Shown: positions 4,438 to 9,455 of the stretch, in pieces
Position numbering within the stretch: position 1 is the stretch's first letter
Layout: every line of letters starts with the position of its first letter
Assembly: GCA_024276275.1 (NCBI GenBank)
Contig: JAJRXM010000033.1
Span: 1 to 47,343 of the forward strand
DNA: 47,343 nucleotides
Direction of reading: 5' to 3'
DNA from: Candidatus Zixiibacteriota bacterium
GTDB taxonomy: Bacteria; Zixibacteria; MSB-5A5; GN15; FEB-12
Notes under the pieces: model-generated
Database searches by the model: none
Seen by the model: only the letters and a program-made list of their open reading frames with translations
What the model was told of the DNA's origin: nothing
Program-made: the position numbers and the translations under genes

Positions 4438-6117
4438 ATGGCAGAACAATATATTTTTACAATGCTTCGGCTTGACAAGCATTACGGTCAAAAGCAAATA
4501 CTTAAAAATATCAATCTCTGTTTTTTCCCCGGAGCCAAAATCGGCATTGTCGGCGAAAACGGGTCGGGTAAATCAACTGTTCTAAATATAATGGCGGGAC
4601 TTGATGATGAATTCACCGGGCAGGCAGACTTAACCCCGGGCAATGAATCAGGAATTGTACTACAGGAACCTATTTTAGATGAAACCAAAACTGTTCGGGC
4701 AACTATTGAATCGGCCTTTGTAAAAATCAACCAGATGCTTGCCGATTACGACAAAGTGACAGCATCGATGGCGGAGCCGATGTCTGATGATGAAATGGCA
4801 AAAGCGATGGACCGTATGGCAGTGCTGCAAGACCAACTTGACACAGCAGATGCCTGGAATTTAGACCAAAAGATTGACCACGCCTCCGATGCGATGTGTC
4901 TTCCAGATGACGACCGTATTATCGGAACTCTATCAGGCGGTGAAAAACGCCGTGTCGCTCTTTGTAAAGCTCTCCTTGAAAAACCTGATTTACTTCTGCT
5001 TGACGAACCGACCAACCATTTGGATGCCGAAACTATCGACTGGCTGGAAATTCAACTGCGTGAATATCCCGGAACTGTTATAGTCGTTACTCATGACAGG
5101 TATTTCCTTGATAATATTACAAAATGGATTTTAGAACTCGACGGCGGTGAAGGTATTCCGTATGAAGGCAACTATACCTCGTGGATTCAGCAAAAACTTG
5201 AAAAACTGGCTGCTGCTCAAAAAGGTGATTCACACCGAACTAAGGCATTGGAGCATGAACTCTCATGGATAAAGATGAGCAATAACGACCGCAAAGAACT
5301 TGCCCGAAACAGAATTGCCGATTATGAAAAACTTATAGCAAAAGAAAAAGTCAAAGCCGAAGGCAACCGCAATGCGATTGAAATTGTTCGCGGTCCTGAA
5401 CTCGGTTCACAAGTTTTGGAATTTGCAAATGTCTCCAAAGGGTTTGACGGAAACACGCTGATTGAAAATCTTGATTTCAAACTTCCTCGCTCGGCTATTG
5501 TCGGCGTTGTCGGACCGAACGGAACAGGAAAAACAACACTTTTTAAAATGATAACCGGTGATGAAAAGCCTGATTCGGGTGAGGTTACTTTAGGACAGAC
5601 TGTCAAAGTTGCTTTTGTCGACCAGGACCGTTCCACACTTGAAGATACTCATTCGCTTATACAAGAAGTCGGTGAAGGATTAGAAGAAATAGATTTTGGC
5701 GATAGAAAAATACCTATCCGTCAGTATCTTTCCCGTTTCGGATTCAAAGGTGCCGACCAGCAGAAAAAAGCAAACGAACTCTCCGGCGGTGAACGTAACA
5801 GAGTGCATCTTGCTAAAGTTCTTAAACAGGGCGGTAATGTTTTACTGCTTGATGAACCGACCAATGATTTGGATGTAAATACATTGCGGATGCTTGAAGA
5901 AGCTATTTTAGAATTTTCGGGTTGTATATTAGTAATTTCGCATGACAGGTTTTTCTTAAACAGAATATGTACTCATCTGTTAGTATTTGAAGGTGACCAA
6001 AAAGTACATTGGTTTGAGGGGAACTATAACGATTATGAAGAGTGGCGGAAAAAAACTCATGGCACGGCTTTGTTTGAAAACCGCCGTAACAGATATCGGA
6101 AATTAGTAAAAAGTTAA
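4438..6117 (+). CDS. ettA: energy-dependent translational throttle protein EttA (ABC-F ATPase)
   Basis: A 559-residue twin-ATPase ABC-F protein, against 555 in E. coli EttA, and colinear with it from start to end. The first ATPase has Walker A GENGSGKST at residues 39-47, signature LSGGEKRR and Walker B LLLLDEPTNHLD. The second has GPNGTGKTT near residue 362, LSGGERNR and LLLDEPTNDLD. The linker between them carries the P-site-tRNA-interaction region. There are no membrane segments. EttA binds the ribosomal E site and gates the first translocation according to ADP/ATP ratio. The start is supported by AAAAGGAATTAAAATG, and the gene ends with tandem TAA TAA. It stands alone on the plus strand between minus-strand genes. 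Confidence 0.95.
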   Translation: MAEQYIFTMLRLDKHYGQKQILKNINLCFFPGAKIGIVGENGSGKSTVLNIMAGLDDEFTGQADLTPGNESGIVLQEPILDETKTVRATIESAFVKINQMLADYDKVTASMAEPMSDDEMAKAMDRMAVLQDQLDTADAWNLDQKIDHASDAMCLPDDDRIIGTLSGGEKRRVALCKALLEKPDLLLLDEPTNHLDAETIDWLEIQLREYPGTVIVVTHDRYFLDNITKWILELDGGEGIPYEGNYTSWIQQKLEKLAAAQKGDSHRTKALEHELSWIKMSNNDRKELARNRIADYEKLIAKEKVKAEGNRNAIEIVRGPELGSQVLEFANVSKGFDGNTLIENLDFKLPRSAIVGVVGPNGTGKTTLFKMITGDEKPDSGEVTLGQTVKVAFVDQDRSTLEDTHSLIQEVGEGLEEIDFGDRKIPIRQYLSRFGFKGADQQKKANELSGGERNRVHLAKVLKQGGNVLLLDEPTNDLDVNTLRMLEEAILEFSGCILVISHDRFFLNRICTHLLVFEGDQKVHWFEGNYNDYEEWRKKTHGTALFENRRNRYRKLVKS

Positions 6118-7021
6118 TAAATAAAAACGGTGAGGAGTATTTCCAATCCTCACCGTCATCGAAATCATCTATATCACTTTCAAAGTCAAAAAATAACTCA
6201 TTTTTTCTTTTTTTCTCAGCAAGTAAATCAGCTCGTTTGAGATAGATTTTATGAGTTATCTCATAACCAAGCTCTTCATTTGCTCGAGCAAGTTTATAGA
6301 AATATTCGGAATCGGTCGGGTCAATTTTCACCAATTTCTTTAGCGGTTTAATAGCTTTGTTATACTGTTCCAGCATAAGATATGAAAAAGCTTCAATACG
6401 ATATGCCCATTCATATTCATCATCTATTTCAATCGCCTGCTTGGCAACATTTATAGCACGATCATACCAACCTGCCTTATAATACTTTTCGGCAAGCTCT
6501 ATAAGTTCATAATCATCGGTAGAGTCATCACGCACTATTATTTCCTGCAACTCAATTTCATATTCCAATGAATTTCTTTTATGCTCATAGCGGATTTTGT
6601 TGCGAACTTTTTCAAGCATCCTTCCGAGCATATTTGCCCCAAATCCTTTATCATTCTGCCCCCAATACCTGTCGGTATCTGAATAAAAGACAATAGAGCA
6701 TTCGTTGGAATTTAGAATTTTTGTTTCAAGCTCAAGATGTTAACTGAACTTGGCATGCAATGCGGTAAACATAACAGCATCACGTTTACAATCCCAATTT
6801 ATTCCTGATGCATAAAACCGACTTTGTCCGATTCTCCATGCTTTGTTTGCTGTTTTGGCTAACCGAATTTTTTCAGATAGATATGAATCAGAAAATTTCT
6901 GAGCTTGATAAAAATGTTCTACTGTCTGCCATGCTTTCCCATTGATATACACGCCAAATTTTGCATAGTTTGAGAATGACCCAAACGCTCCTTTAGTAGT
7001 GTTATCAAATTTTATAGTCAT
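5903..7021 (-). pseudogene. NADAR domain + TPR fusion protein, interrupted by an in-frame TAA
   Basis: Reading from the ATG at 7021, residues 1-93 are the first part of a NADAR (YbiA-like) domain: GSFSNYAKFGVYINGK and WQTVEHFYQAQKF. An in-frame TAA follows at 6742-6740. The same frame continues with the rest of the domain, HLELETKILN...DTDRYWGQNDKGFGANMLGR, so the TAA replaces one codon (Gln expected in KFSQHLEL) rather than ending the gene. After the domain (about residue 155) come TPR-like helices (about 168-265) and an acidic tail. The next-available ATG is 6631. The frame then runs through the terminator at 6127-6156 and 215 bases antisense into ettA before a stop at 5903, which is not credible as protein; a stop near 6160 was probably lost. 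NADAR proteins are N-glycosidases acting on riboflavin intermediates or ADP-ribosylated guanine. Nearby SPFH and tRNA-like genes suggest a nucleic-acid repair or conflict role (inference). Confidence 0.75.
6127..6156 (-). terminator. rho-independent terminator for the minus-strand NADAR-TPR gene
   Basis: ACGGTGAGGA (6127-6136) pairs perfectly with TCCTCACCGT (6147-6156): a 10-bp stem and 10-base loop. On the minus strand it is followed by TTTTTATTTATT. There is no T-run on the plus side, so it mainly stops leftward transcription, although ettA ends ten bases away and may also use the hairpin. Confidence 0.75.
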
Positions 7022-7054
7022 TGTTGTTCTTTCTCATTAAAATAATTTTATAGT

Positions 7055-7079
7055 AAGGAGCAGAACTTTTCTGCTCCTT
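7055..7079 (-). terminator. strong 11-bp hairpin between small ORF and NADAR gene
   Basis: AAGGAGCAGAA (7055-7065) pairs with TTCTGCTCCTT (7069-7079) across a 3-base loop. The T-run lies on the plus side (TTTTGTT). On the minus strand the tail is AU-rich but not a T-run, so for the leftward operon it is better read as an attenuator or mRNA-processing hairpin lying between the stop at 7083 and the ATG at 7021. Confidence 0.5.
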
Positions 7080-7082
7080 TTG

Positions 7083-7214
7083 TTAACGCAATATGTTTTG
7101 ATCAAAAAACCAATTTTCAAGTTTGCTCCACTCTAAGTCAAAATAACTTAGATTCCGGTATTCTTGTTCAGCTTTTGAATCTTTTCCTTTGAGTATTTCA
7201 AATATATAAAACAT
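7083..7214 (-). CDS. 43-residue hypothetical protein downstream of the SPFH gene
   Basis: ATG at 7214 behind CGGAGATATAAAATG (good spacing), 43 codons to TAA at 7083. The sequence begins MFYIFEILKGKDSKAEQEYRN and ends WFFDQNILR. It is rich in charged and aromatic residues, with no signal peptide or membrane segment. It lies 49 bases after the SPFH stop and 61 before the NADAR start, in the same direction, so it is probably part of the same operon. I do not recognise a family. The ribosome site and codon-like composition are the only support. Confidence 0.45.
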   Translation of the reverse strand: MFYIFEILKGKDSKAEQEYRNLSYFDLEWSKLENWFFDQNILR

Positions 7215-7263
7215 TTTATATCTCCGTTTCTTATTCGGAGATTGAGATAACAACCTCCGAAAT

Positions 7264-8367
7264 TTAAATCAGTTTCATTATTTTATCCTTCAGCCCTTCA
7301 TCACCTAAGATGACTTTTAAGTCTGAGCTGCCGGCAATTCTTTCTAAAACTTCCAGCTCCTTCAGTTTCATCAGCACCGGAGAAGATTCCAAAATTTTAG
7401 CTGAGTTCAGCTGCGATCTAAGCGAAGCAGTTTCTTCTCTTCGTACAATTAAGTTTGCTTCCGAAGTTTTCTTAGCCTCAACAACTTTGTTCATCAGTTC
7501 TTTCATATCACCGGGAAGGATAATATCTTTAATTCTTAAAGAGACAATCTGAAGACCTAAGTCACTAGTCGATTTAGCCAAGCTTTGTTTCATCTCTTGT
7601 GAGATTGAATCTTTTTCAACTAAAAGAGATTCCAAGTCAAATTGTCCGACAGTTTCTCTTAACACAAGCTGAGCTTCTTTGTAAATTGCCTGTGTGTAAT
7701 CATCAACGGCAGTTACTGCTTTTAAAGAATCAACAACCTTTAGAGAAACCATTGCATTTATTCTCAGTGTTACTTTATCAAGAGTCAGTAATTCCTGTCC
7801 GTTGATTTCGATTTTTGTGTCATGCTTATCAACAGTCACCAGACTAAAACTACCGACAGATTTCCAGTACAAATGCAGTCCCGGTTCTAGCACTTCTACA
7901 ATCTTTCCGTCAAGCGACAGAATACCCTGACACCCGTCTGAAATCATGTACTGATGAATAAGAGAGTTAAATTTCAAAGACTGTTGTAAAACCGAAATCT
8001 TTTCATGTATAATCTCTTTAGCAGTTACTTCAAGAATTTCAATTTTAATCTTATGAAATTCTTTCCAGTAAGCATAAACACCCGATGTCAACACATCTGA
8101 AAGCCTATTGTCAATCCAGACAAGAGCAACCTGACTATCTGAAAGGTTTACAATCTCAGCACTCGTATCTAATAGTTCTGATTTAATAATCATTTCTAAG
8201 TCAGGAATATCAATTCGTGCGGTAACAGTAGTTAATACCCGCACTTTCACGTTGAACATCCAACCCCAAAACCAATAGATACCTTCTTCTAAGATTCTTT
8301 TGATTTGCTTGTCATGAAAAAGGAATCCTTTTTCATACTTTCTAATTTTAATTCTTTTTACAAACAT
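7264..8367 (-). CDS. SPFH/Band-7 (slipin-like) protein, soluble form with three N-terminal repeats
   Basis: The start is set at the ATG at 8367 behind AAAGGAGGAACAATG; the frame is open upstream to 8466, but without a ribosome site. The 367-residue product has no N-terminal membrane helix, unlike membrane stomatins. It shows three related blocks ending in GIYWFW (about 30), GVYAYW (about 93) and GLHLYW (about 163), each preceded by a strand of type LxxxxxxxxVLxxG. The third leads into the SPFH domain (about 165-330: DKVTLRINAMVSLKV, then LGLQIVSLRIKDIILP, typical of slipins) and a helical C-terminus. SPFH proteins oligomerise as scaffolds. Adjacent tRNA-like RNAs match the SPFH/tRNA-like pairing reported in bacterial RNA-repair gene neighbourhoods, so a scaffold for RNA handling is the favoured role. 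No RtcB or other ligase is in the window. Confidence 0.75.
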   Translation of the reverse strand: MFVKRIKIRKYEKGFLFHDKQIKRILEEGIYWFWGWMFNVKVRVLTTVTARIDIPDLEMIIKSELLDTSAEIVNLSDSQVALVWIDNRLSDVLTSGVYAYWKEFHKIKIEILEVTAKEIIHEKISVLQQSLKFNSLIHQYMISDGCQGILSLDGKIVEVLEPGLHLYWKSVGSFSLVTVDKHDTKIEINGQELLTLDKVTLRINAMVSLKVVDSLKAVTAVDDYTQAIYKEAQLVLRETVGQFDLESLLVEKDSISQEMKQSLAKSTSDLGLQIVSLRIKDIILPGDMKELMNKVVEAKKTSEANLIVRREETASLRSQLNSAKILESSPVLMKLKELEVLERIAGSSDLKVILGDEGLKDKIMKLI

Positions 8368-8469
8368 TGTTCCTCCTTTCAATTGAGGGTTTTCTAATTT
8401 ATTATTAAAAAACTTTATCTTTCTTATTTTATAGACTTTCCAAAGACAGAAACTGAAACACCACATGCA

Positions 8470-8589
8470 TCATACGGAGTGTTGCTTAAGTGAAAAGATT
8501 TCTTTGCTTGCTTCCCCCTCACCAATAATTGTAGAAGCATAGCAATTTTTCTTAGCACGGAATCCGCACACTTCAAAGTATTTTGTCAT
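8470..8589 (-). CDS. 39-residue hypothetical protein between the tRNA-like RNAs and the SPFH gene
   Basis: ATG at 8589 to TGA at 8470, preceded by a G-rich GGGGGGAAG at a somewhat long distance. It begins MTKYFEVCGFRAKKNCYAS and has two cysteines eight residues apart. It lies in the same frame as the SPFH gene, with TGA then TGC ATG joining them, so it could be the remnant of an N-terminal extension or a separate small protein. I do not recognise a family. Confidence 0.4.
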   Translation of the reverse strand: MTKYFEVCGFRAKKNCYASTIIGEGEASKEIFSLKQHSV

Positions 8590-8674
8590 GTTGTCTTATT
8601 TCTTCCCCCCAAGAATCAAGACCGGTATTAACAGTTACCGTCTTCTTCAAGCCTATTTTGATCCACGAACAAAG

Positions 8675-8751
8675 TGGCTGTGACACAGGATTTGAACCTG
8701 CGACAAATGGATCCTATGTCCATCGCTCTAACCATACTGAGCTAATCACAT
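8675..8751 (-). ncRNA. tRNA-like RNA 2 (near-canonical cloverleaf, odd anticodon loop)
   Basis: Read on the minus strand from 8751. The acceptor is ATGTGAT paired with GTCACAG (six pairs; the terminal pair mismatches), ending in CCA at 8677-8675. The D-arm is GCTC/GAGC with a GG-containing loop. The anticodon-position arm is ATGGA/TCCAT with a 7-base loop CATAGGA. The variable loop is five bases and the T-arm GCAGG/CCTGT has loop TTCAAAT. The anticodon position would be UAG (8716-8714), but base 33 is A instead of the near-universal U, and a Leu reading does not fit the short variable loop. It looks like a tRNA mimic rather than a decoding tRNA. It begins just after tRNA-like RNA 1 and precedes the SPFH operon. 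Confidence 0.7.
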
Positions 8752-8752
8752 T

Positions 8753-8826
8753 ATGAAGGTAGGGAATCGAACCCTTAAAAGGCGTATAGCCTTTACCTGT
8801 CCATGCATTTAAAGTGCATTCTTCAT
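8753..8826 (-). ncRNA. tRNA-like RNA 1 (non-canonical, canonical T-arm)
   Basis: A 74-base unit read from 8826. ATGAAG at the 5' end pairs with CTTCAT at the 3' end. Inside are three hairpins: ATGCA-CTTTAAA-TGCAT, then AAAGG-CTATACG-CCTTT, then a T-arm AGGG-TTCGATT-CCCT with the conserved TTCGA core. An eight-base linker between the first two hairpins and a nearly absent variable loop do not fit an ordinary tRNA. In an alternative fold, TAAAGGT upstream (8840-8834) pairs with ACCTTCA. The CTTTAAA hairpin then becomes the anticodon arm with anticodon UUA, and the AAAGGC/GCCTTT hairpin becomes a long variable arm, with the D-arm lacking. No encoded CCA follows. A cognate RNA of the SPFH protein is the best guess. 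Confidence 0.55.
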
Positions 8827-9153
8827 GTGTACAACCTTTAGTAGAAACCATGTTCGGAACAGATACAGCAAACATCATATAGAAGTGCTGTATATGCCGC
8901 TGGAAGGAGGTACATTTTTTTTCGATTTAATTGTTTTTTTTGGGGAGTTATAAAGAGAATAATAACAGAATTGAATTAAAGCATTTTACATTTTTACTTC
9001 ACTAATCAAATATCTGATTTATTCACTCATAATACTGCCGATAAAAAAACATATCGAGTAATTTTTCTTCTATACCGCTTGAATATGGCTCGACCATAGT
9101 TTCCTTGTTCGTTTAATCATATTTTATCTTTCCTTACTACTTTAACATAAAAA
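8827..9153. other. intergenic stretch upstream of the tRNA-like RNAs
   Basis: No credible protein gene is seen. Besides the candidate promoter there is a 7-bp inverted repeat TACAGCA/TGCTGTA (8864-8870 with 8886-8892) just upstream of tRNA-like RNA 1, and two T-runs near 8916-8937 on the plus strand. Between 9182 and 9455, on the far side of the terminator, the only open frame is a 28-codon minus-strand ORF (9293-9207) with no ribosome site, which I do not call. Confidence 0.4.
8947..8975 (-). promoter_or_regulatory. weak candidate promoter for the tRNA-like/SPFH operon
   Basis: On the minus strand, TTCAAT (8975-8970), a 17-base spacer and TATAAC (8952-8947). The -10 is good and the -35 poor. 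It would start transcription near 8940, before both tRNA-like units. No sigma-54 type GG-N10-GC element is evident in this stretch. Confidence 0.3.
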
Positions 9154-9181
9154 AAACCCTGAGAACCAAATCTCAGGGTTT
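9154..9181 (-). terminator. rho-independent terminator downstream of arcA
   Basis: AAACCCTGAGA (9154-9164) pairs with TCTCAGGGTTT (9171-9181), an 11-bp stem with a 6-base loop. On the minus strand it is followed by a run of T. It separates the arcA transcript from the tRNA-like/SPFH operon. Confidence 0.8.
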
Positions 9182-9455
9182 ATATATTATAAACGGGTAA
9201 TCCCTGTTATGTGGTTTTTCTTCCTCTAAAAGATGCAATATATCTTGCGTCTGATTGAAGGTTCATTGTGATTGCTATAAATAAATTTTTCATACTATTC
9301 TTAATTTTTTCTATTTTTATGTTCAAACTTGATGCGGAATAAACAGGAAAAGAAAAATAAGTCAAGAACTATTTTCACGAAAATGAAAAAAACTATAAAA
9401 AGACCTGTATAATAAATTGTAAATTTAAAATAATACAGATTATAAATTGTTGTCT

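What the first reader, a model, noticed from the sequence alone, without database searches (positions are those of the whole stretch)
7083..8975. SPFH/Band-7 operon headed by two adjacent tRNA-like RNAs, without a visible RNA ligase
Seen: on one strand, two tRNA-like units one base apart (8826-8753, 8751-8675), a 39-codon ORF, an SPFH protein with a strong ribosome site, a 43-codon ORF and a NADAR-TPR gene. Known: Burroughs and Aravind's 2016 survey of RNA repair systems described SPFH/Band-7 modules paired with a novel tRNA-like molecule, usually near RtcB or ATP-grasp ligases. Here no ligase, RtcR or archease is in 47 kb, and a NADAR (ADP-ribose-related) gene takes the downstream place. This could be a reduced or variant system in which a tRNA mimic pair is scaffolded by a soluble SPFH oligomer to sense or repair damaged tRNA.
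Basis: partly seen in the sequence, partly recalled or inferred. Interest (0 to 1): 0.82.

Follow-up and report, generated by a model that had tools for sequence, protein, structure and literature searches.

The report
Stress-switched tRNA-mimic RNA with SPFH protein
This bacterium carries a conserved RNA with two imitation-tRNA domains beside the gene for a ring-forming SPFH protein; the pair is related to known RNA-repair operons, but its genome has none of the repair enzymes searched for, and a built-in switch appears to turn it on when protein synthesis fails.

Summary
Unit 2 (8751-8677) scores as tRNA-like in Rfam. Unit 1 (8826-8753) folds as a cloverleaf in the window and in a congeneric genome, with five double compensatory changes. 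Both sit in a larger RNA (about 8909-8475) conserved in Planctomycetota, Acidobacteriota and the window's phylum: a T-arm motif lies upstream of 53 of 61 SPFH orthologues and 0 of 18 other SPFH genes. A covariance model built without the window finds it at 79 bits, the best hit in the genome. Family-wide only three acceptor pairs are conserved and anticodons vary, so these are not decoding tRNAs. The SPFH protein is a distant relative of 'slipins' encoded with RtcR, RtcB or RlaP, so the module is known in outline (Burroughs and Aravind 2016, from memory; not held here). New: this genome has no detectable RtcB, RtcR, RlaP or PF09414 ligase, and where RtcR is missing a short leader ORF and terminator usually precede the RNA (12 of 14 loci; about 17% expected), suggesting induction when leader translation fails. 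The '39-codon ORF' lies inside the RNA. The NADAR-TPR gene has an in-frame stop and is mostly not a conserved neighbour. Function is inferred, not shown.

The parts
9337..9365 (-). sigma70-like promoter (TTGACT-17-TTATTC), read by eye
   Evidence: similar TTGAC-17-TAnnnT promoters precede the leader in L002, L007, L009, L011, L012, L016, L046
9207..9293 (-). leader ORF, 28 codons, MKNLFIAITMNLQSDARYIASFRGRKTT*
   Evidence: counterpart MIFCIANTLARLSDVKVCRGGRYTT* in L002; 12 of 14 loci have such an ORF ending 43-70 nt before the terminator T-run
9149..9181 (-). intrinsic terminator (AAACCCTGAGA..TCTCAGGG + T8) of the proposed attenuator
   Evidence: dG -17.5; an alternative upstream pairing of its 5' arm has z -2.6
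8672..8909 (-). core of the conserved RNA: 5' domain (P1, P2 hairpin UGUUCCGAACAUGG) plus the tRNA-like region
   Evidence: model R1, 79.2 bits, E 1.8e-21, full length, window not used in training
8753..8826 (-). tRNA-like unit 1 (4-arm cloverleaf; 5-nt loop in the anticodon arm)
   Evidence: MFE cloverleaf, z -2.1; the same fold in L002 with 5 double compensatory changes
8677..8751 (-). tRNA-like unit 2 (nominal anticodon UAG, A at position 33, short variable loop)
   Evidence: Rfam RF00005 46.6 bits
8475..8565 (-). 3' part of the RNA with family motifs GGAUUCCG (8565-8558) and CUUAAGCAACACUCCG (8490-8475)
   Evidence: GGAUNCCG in 24 of 59 loci (1.6 expected), YUYAARCRnnnCUCCG in 16 (0.04 expected)
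7264..8367 (-). SPFH/Band-7 protein, 367 aa (P0001): two extra N-terminal beta repeats, SPFH domain, long C-terminal helix; no membrane anchor visible
7083..7214 (-). small ORF, 43 codons, MFYIFEILKGKDSKAEQEYRNLSYFDLEWSKLENWFFDQNILR
   Evidence: conserved in L002 as a 42-codon ORF; no family match
5903..7021 (-). NADAR-TPR reading frame with one in-frame TAA at 6742-6740; probably broken, or a sequence error
   Evidence: an intact NADAR follows SPFH in L003

Best explanation
The locus is a divergent, ligase-free member of the SPFH ('slipin') plus tRNA-like RNA module. Transcription starts at a sigma70-type promoter. Normally the 28-codon leader is translated to its stop, which hides one arm of an antiterminator, so the terminator at 9181-9149 stops transcription. 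When ribosomes fail to reach the end of the leader (tRNA damage, amino-acid starvation, inhibitors), the antiterminator forms and RNA polymerase reads on. It then makes a structured RNA of about 430 nt carrying two tRNA-like domains, and the SPFH protein. The SPFH protein, with stacked beta repeats, an SPFH domain and a long helix, assembles as a soluble ring or cage and uses the RNA as its cognate partner in coping with damaged or scarce tRNA: as scaffold, decoy or storage particle. Shown by sequence: the RNA family, its structure, its link to SPFH, the kinship with RtcR/RtcB/RlaP operons, and the leader ORF plus terminator. Inferred: the switch, its sense, the RNA-protein contact and the physiological role.
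For: RNA-SPFH link: T-arm motif upstream of 53 of 61 orthologues versus 0 of 18 other SPFH genes (Fisher P 6e-12). RNA structure: 20 of 27 pairs have double compensatory changes, acceptor conserved at 3 bp only; acceptor bp 5-7 paired in 97-100% of 40 tRNA-likes, bp 1-4 in 47-62%, against 7 of 7 in the genome's own tRNAs; U33 in only 22 of 34. Independent test: R1 finds the window RNA. Kinship: relatives with RtcR in Citrobacter, Photobacterium and Burkholderia, RtcB directly downstream in Photobacterium, Burkholderia and Subdoligranulum, and RlaP in Citrobacter. Switch: ATG leader ORF in 12 of 14 loci versus 1.4 expected from shuffles and 17% at other terminators (P 5e-8); antiterminator energies mean z -2.2. 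Regulatory swap: 12 of 14 genomes with the terminator lack RtcR; loci with divergent adjacent RtcR have a sigma54-type promoter instead, and in the Acidobacteriota examples (L052, L054) no leader/terminator was found. Precedent: in Anabaena, slipin alr0740 and rtcB are in the TrcR regulon; the rtcB and tRNA-array promoters of that regulon are derepressed by translation antibiotics (PMC10272220).
Against: No expression or biochemical data. The antiterminator is strong in some loci (L007, L009, L012) but weak in L002, L011, L016, L046 and L050. The leader peptides share no sequence across phyla. L048 and L049 have the leader although their genomes hold RtcR. L003, of the window's own phylum, has no leader or terminator. 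Unit 2 of the window keeps a 6-bp acceptor, so its distance from tRNA is less plain than in other members. SPFH proteins commonly work at membranes; solubility is inferred only from the absence of a visible anchor.
Confidence: 0.55

Rival explanations
1. The tRNA-like RNA is a decoy: it binds and occupies a tRNA-attacking toxin (an anticodon nuclease or an ADP-ribosyltransferase), and the SPFH cage concentrates it. The variable anticodon loops follow the toxins.
For: Anticodon loops vary while the body is conserved; patchy spread (3 of 132, 16 of 396, 48 of 343 genomes) fits a conflict system; NADARs remove ADP-ribose from guanosine in RNA (PMC11833690) and a NADAR gene follows SPFH in the window and in L003; Hughes et al. 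[quoted passage not shown]
Against: No toxin gene was identified at the locus; NADAR is rarely the neighbour and has an internal stop in the window; relatives carry repair enzymes rather than toxins.
Confidence: 0.2
2. The tRNA-like domains act only in cis: they are a processing or stability element in the 5' leader of the SPFH mRNA (for example an RNase P or RNase Z site).
For: The RNA lies in sense, directly upstream of SPFH, with no separate promoter or terminator recognised between them.
Against: A conserved acceptor of 3 bp in most members is expected to be a poor RNase P or Z substrate; conserved 5' and 3' domains flank the tRNA-like part and extend beyond it; two tandem units are not needed for one cut.
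Confidence: 0.15
3. Ordinary or decaying tRNA genes that happen to lie upstream, for instance because islands insert at tRNA genes.
For: Many Planctomycetota loci lie near arrays of real or degenerate tRNAs.
Against: The same RNA with the same extra helices precedes SPFH in several phyla; helices covary; held-out loci, the window among them, are found by the model; anticodons, U33 and acceptor do not fit decoding.
Confidence: 0.03
4. The leader ORF and the terminator have nothing to do with the RNA: a small gene with its own terminator lies upstream by chance, and transcription of RNA and SPFH starts further down.
For: Leader peptides are not conserved across phyla; antiterminators are weak in several loci.
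Against: 12 of 14 against about 17% expected; the stop-to-terminator distance of 43-70 nt recurs on at least six branches of the tree; RtcR is missing in most of these genomes.
Confidence: 0.25

Closest known systems
SPFH/Band-7 modules with a tRNA-like RNA in RNA-repair systems (Burroughs and Aravind 2016, NAR 44:8525; paper not held, recalled from memory; cited in PMC7790460)
   Same: SPFH protein of the same full-length architecture, with tRNA-like RNA directly upstream; relatives flanked by RtcR, RtcB or RlaP
   Different: Here no RtcB, PF09414 ligase, RtcR or RlaP in the genome; a leader-ORF terminator in place of the sigma54/RtcR switch; two tRNA-like units, one of them (unit 1) very unlike tRNA
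Anabaena TrcR regulon (slipin alr0740, rtcB, 26-tRNA trn operon, HNH all8564)
   Same: Slipin and rtcB held under a translation-stress regulator (PMC10272220); Planctomycetota loci also put slipin beside a tRNA array with an HNH gene (L017)
   Different: Anabaena uses the repressor protein TrcR; whether alr0740 has this RNA upstream was not tested
Ro60/Rsr with Y RNA (YrlA carries a tRNA-like domain)
   Same: A protein ring with a tRNA-mimicking RNA in RNA-repair operons (own knowledge; PMC7790460)
   Different: Different protein fold; the Rfam YrlA model scores 21 bits against a cut-off of 69
Eukaryotic vault particle (major vault protein, vault RNA)
   Same: MVP chains align with the model along nearly its whole length (4-351, Z 11.1), whereas other SPFH proteins align from about residue 120-130 on
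   Different: 11% identity; the N-terminal repeats alone match SPFH1-type domains as well as or better than MVP; vault RNA is not tRNA-like in this way (own knowledge)

Membership tests
SPFH plus tRNA-like RNA module | SPFH/Band-7 protein of the slipin kind, alignable over its full length with those beside RtcR/RtcB/RlaP | tested here: met
   (90-100% of the query covered at 30-33% identity, with N-terminal repeats)
SPFH plus tRNA-like RNA module | tRNA-like RNA immediately upstream, in sense | tested here: met
RtcB/RtcR RNA-repair operon | RNA ligase (RtcB, or PF09414 type) in the operon or genome | tested here: not met
   none in the 95%-complete genome; so it is not filed as a ligase repair operon
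RtcB/RtcR RNA-repair operon | RtcR with sigma54 promoter | tested here: not met
   no RtcR in G000; no sigma54 motif at the locus
RtcB/RtcR RNA-repair operon | RlaP nucleotidyltransferase partner | tested here: not met
Genuine decoding tRNA | 7-bp acceptor stem | tested here: not met
   family-wide only bp 5-7 conserved; window unit 2 has 6 of 7; the genome's own tRNAs 7 of 7
Genuine decoding tRNA | U33 and an anticodon consistent with the arm class | tested here: not met
   window unit 2 has A33 and a Leu anticodon in a short-variable-arm body; U33 in 22 of 34
Leader-peptide transcription attenuator | short translatable leader ORF ending just before an intrinsic terminator | tested here: met
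Leader-peptide transcription attenuator | mutually exclusive antiterminator | tested here: inconclusive
   z from +0.3 to -4.7, mean -2.2; window -2.6, L002 -0.15
Leader-peptide transcription attenuator | read-through depends on translation of the leader | not testable with these tools
   needs a reporter or RNA-seq
Vault (MVP) family | beta repeats, SPFH shoulder and cap helix in one chain | tested here: inconclusive
Vault (MVP) family | closed particle containing RNA | not testable with these tools
   needs electron microscopy
Y RNA (YrlA) | match to the Rfam YrlA model | tested here: not met
   21.4 bits against a gathering score of 69

The most novel reading that the evidence does not exclude
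A bacterial ribonucleoprotein cage, assembled from a vault-like SPFH protein and a tRNA-mimicking RNA, that is made only when translation fails and works without any RNA ligase, for example as a store or decoy that protects tRNAs.
Probability: 0.2. Interest if true: 0.85.

Novelty: new variant of a known kind. Interest (0 to 1): 0.6.

Why it matters
If right, one RNA-plus-SPFH module is kept under translation or tRNA-damage control by different switches: RtcR (senses damaged tRNA), TrcR (Anabaena) and a leader-ORF terminator. This would argue that its job is bound to translation failure itself and not to RNA ligation, since it persists in genomes without a detectable ligase. It also supplies a covariance model and many new members of a poorly known RNA, a testable link to vault-like architecture, and E. 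coli relatives (slipin plus NTase in 1,624 of 5,426 complete genomes) in which experiments can be done.

Tried and rejected
Decaying tRNAs: rejected by covariation and held-out model hits. 39-codon ORF as a gene: rejected. NADAR as a conserved partner: seen only in L003 besides the window. Phage carriage: no match in 50,697 phage records. Defence labels: no PADLOC hit for SPFH; only NADAR hits PDC-M42C. Rfam hits at 9274-9128 (PyrR, His_leader and others) are sub-threshold matches to the terminator region. Leader peptide conserved as an arrest peptide across phyla: no shared sequence. Structure search for the N-terminal repeats alone gave no strong match (best Z 5.9 to SPFH1 of erlin; MVP 3.7), so the vault likeness is kept as a lead only. 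Burroughs and Aravind 2016 could not be read. A literature search for RlaP gave only unrelated uses of the letters.
Full report
CHECK OF THE OBSERVATION. On the minus strand the window holds an SPFH/Band-7 gene (8367-7264; Pfam Band_7 E 1e-31) preceded by two tRNA-like units. Unit 2 (8751-8677) is called by ARAGORN and scores 46.6 bits with the Rfam tRNA model. Unit 1 (8826-8753) is not called, but its minimum-energy fold is a four-arm cloverleaf. The same fold appears in the congeneric genome (L002, 63% identical SPFH) with five double compensatory changes and no broken pair: one in the acceptor, one in the D-like arm, two in the anticodon stem, one in the T stem (read from the sequences). 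The small ORF 7214-7083 is conserved in L002. The 39-codon ORF is not a gene: two motifs of the RNA family lie in it, and in L002 the counterpart is closed by a stop. The NADAR-TPR frame is split by an in-frame TAA (6742-6740), so it is broken, misassembled or recoded; nothing here decides which.

THE RNA. Twenty loci from a public genome scan and 47 loci from phylum-wide searches gave 61 orthologue loci in Planctomycetota, Acidobacteriota, Verrucomicrobiota and the window's phylum (labelled Calditrichaeota or Zixibacteria in the records). A T-arm motif lies within 1 kb upstream, in sense, in 53 of 61, and ARAGORN calls a tRNA in 40 of 61; both are 0 of 18 for other SPFH genes of the window's relatives. 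An alignment of 29 of these RNAs, window excluded, folds into P1, the P2 hairpin (CCGUGNACGG) and a cloverleaf whose acceptor has three conserved pairs; 20 of 27 pairs show double compensatory changes (not corrected for relatedness). A covariance model from it finds the window RNA at 79.2 bits over its full length, the best place in the genome, ahead of other places, mostly tRNA genes, at 64 bits and less; no control SPFH locus is hit. Over 40 tRNA-likes, acceptor pairs 5-7 form in 97-100% and pairs 1-4 in 47-62%; the genome's own tRNAs form all seven. Position 33 is U in 22 of 34, A34 anticodons occur, and Leu and Ser anticodons sit in bodies with a short variable loop. These are mimics, not decoding tRNAs. 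Window unit 2 keeps six acceptor pairs, so in that respect it is less extreme. A 3' part follows, with GGAUNCCG in 24 of 59 loci (1.6 expected) and YUYAARCRnnnCUCCG in 16 (0.04 expected). Tandem units also occur in L048, L064, L066, L077, L081 and Photobacterium, so two units are a recurring option and not unique to this locus.

THE PROTEIN. The AlphaFold2 model (pLDDT 84.7) has two extra five-strand repeats before the SPFH domain, then a long helix; L010 and L014 have one repeat more. Stomatin, HflK, prohibitin and erlin align from about residue 120-130; MVP chains of the vault align from residue 4-5 to about 350 (Z 11). The repeats alone match SPFH1-type domains best, MVP weakly, all at low Z. 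I read this as duplicated SPFH1-like repeats in a vault-like order: a lead, not proof.

KINSHIP. Full-length relatives at 30-33% identity are annotated as slipins. In Citrobacter the slipin has divergent RtcR on one side and RlaP on the other. In Photobacterium and Burkholderia RtcR is close upstream and RtcB is the next gene; RtcB also follows in Subdoligranulum. R1 hits upstream of these slipins (60.8, 52.8 and 19 bits), and Enterobacteria show a half-tRNA remnant with GUGUUCCGU (by eye). So the window module belongs by homology with the SPFH/tRNA-like module of Burroughs and Aravind 2016 (recalled; not held). It is not a ligase repair operon: its genome has no RtcB, RtcR, RlaP or PF09414 ligase. 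Other ligase families were not searched.

THE SWITCH. In 14 loci (window, L002 and twelve Acidobacteriota) a strong terminator lies upstream of the RNA. Twelve have an ATG ORF of at least 20 codons whose stop is 43-70 nt before the T-run, against 1.4 expected from shuffles and 17% at 133 terminators found across the held loci, the attenuators themselves included; P 5e-8. Related loci are not independent; on the tree they sit on at least six branches. In several, the terminator's 5' arm can pair instead with sequence around the leader stop, often a GGAGG motif (z -4.7 in L007, -4.4 in L009, -3.9 in L012, -2.6 in the window, near 0 in L002 and L050; mean -2.2). Twelve of the 14 genomes lack RtcR altogether. 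Loci with adjacent divergent RtcR (L052, L054, Citrobacter, Photobacterium, Burkholderia) have a TGGCAC-type sigma54 promoter instead (L052, L054 and Citrobacter by eye). L003, of the window's own phylum, has neither leader nor terminator. The reading: translated leader, terminator forms, off; leader not translated to its end, antiterminator forms, on.

HOW IT PROBABLY WORKS. RtcR responds to damaged tRNA (PMC7790460). In Anabaena, slipin, rtcB, a tRNA array and an HNH gene are in the TrcR regulon, and the rtcB and tRNA-array promoters are derepressed by translation antibiotics (PMC10272220). In Planctomycetota the slipin RNA sits near tRNA arrays, in L017 with an HNH gene. The leader-terminator would be a further way to couple the module to translation failure. 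What the particle does (scaffold, decoy or store) is inference. NADARs act on ADP-ribosylated guanosine in RNA (PMC11833690), so the NADAR beside SPFH in the window and in L003 is suggestive but rare.

VERDICT. A real, conserved RNA-protein module of a known kind, in a new variant: ligase-free, under a likely translation-sensing attenuator, with a larger RNA than a bare tRNA mimic. Interest 0.6.

Noticed in passing
L017:190-3229, also L005, L066, L078, L088: Planctomycetota SPFH loci lie beside arrays of real and degenerate tRNA genes; in L017 the array also holds an HNH endonuclease gene (about 1995-2590), like the Anabaena L-array with all8564.
   Followed up: partly
window 6742-6740: A single in-frame TAA splits the genome's only NADAR domain; the frame is otherwise intact through the TPR part.
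   Followed up: partly
L003:6495-6938: Intact NADAR gene (P0003) shortly downstream of SPFH in another genome of the same phylum; it hits the PADLOC candidate PDC-M42C at 58.7 bits.
   Followed up: partly
window 4438-6117 and L002 about 5750-7430: An ABC-F type ATPase gene (translation-factor family, by its sequence) lies convergent and downstream in both congeneric genomes.
   Followed up: no
L010, L014: SPFH proteins of two Planctomycetota carry one more N-terminal beta repeat than the rest.
   Followed up: no
L102 and 1,624 E. coli genomes: A slipin plus nucleotidyltransferase pair is found in about 30% of complete E. coli genomes (near rluF in strain S10); in strain S10 RtcR is not adjacent.
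   Followed up: partly
L082, L083, L084, L059: Orthologous SPFH loci where neither the T-arm motif nor the RNA model finds the RNA; L086 has a model hit on the opposite strand upstream.
   Followed up: no
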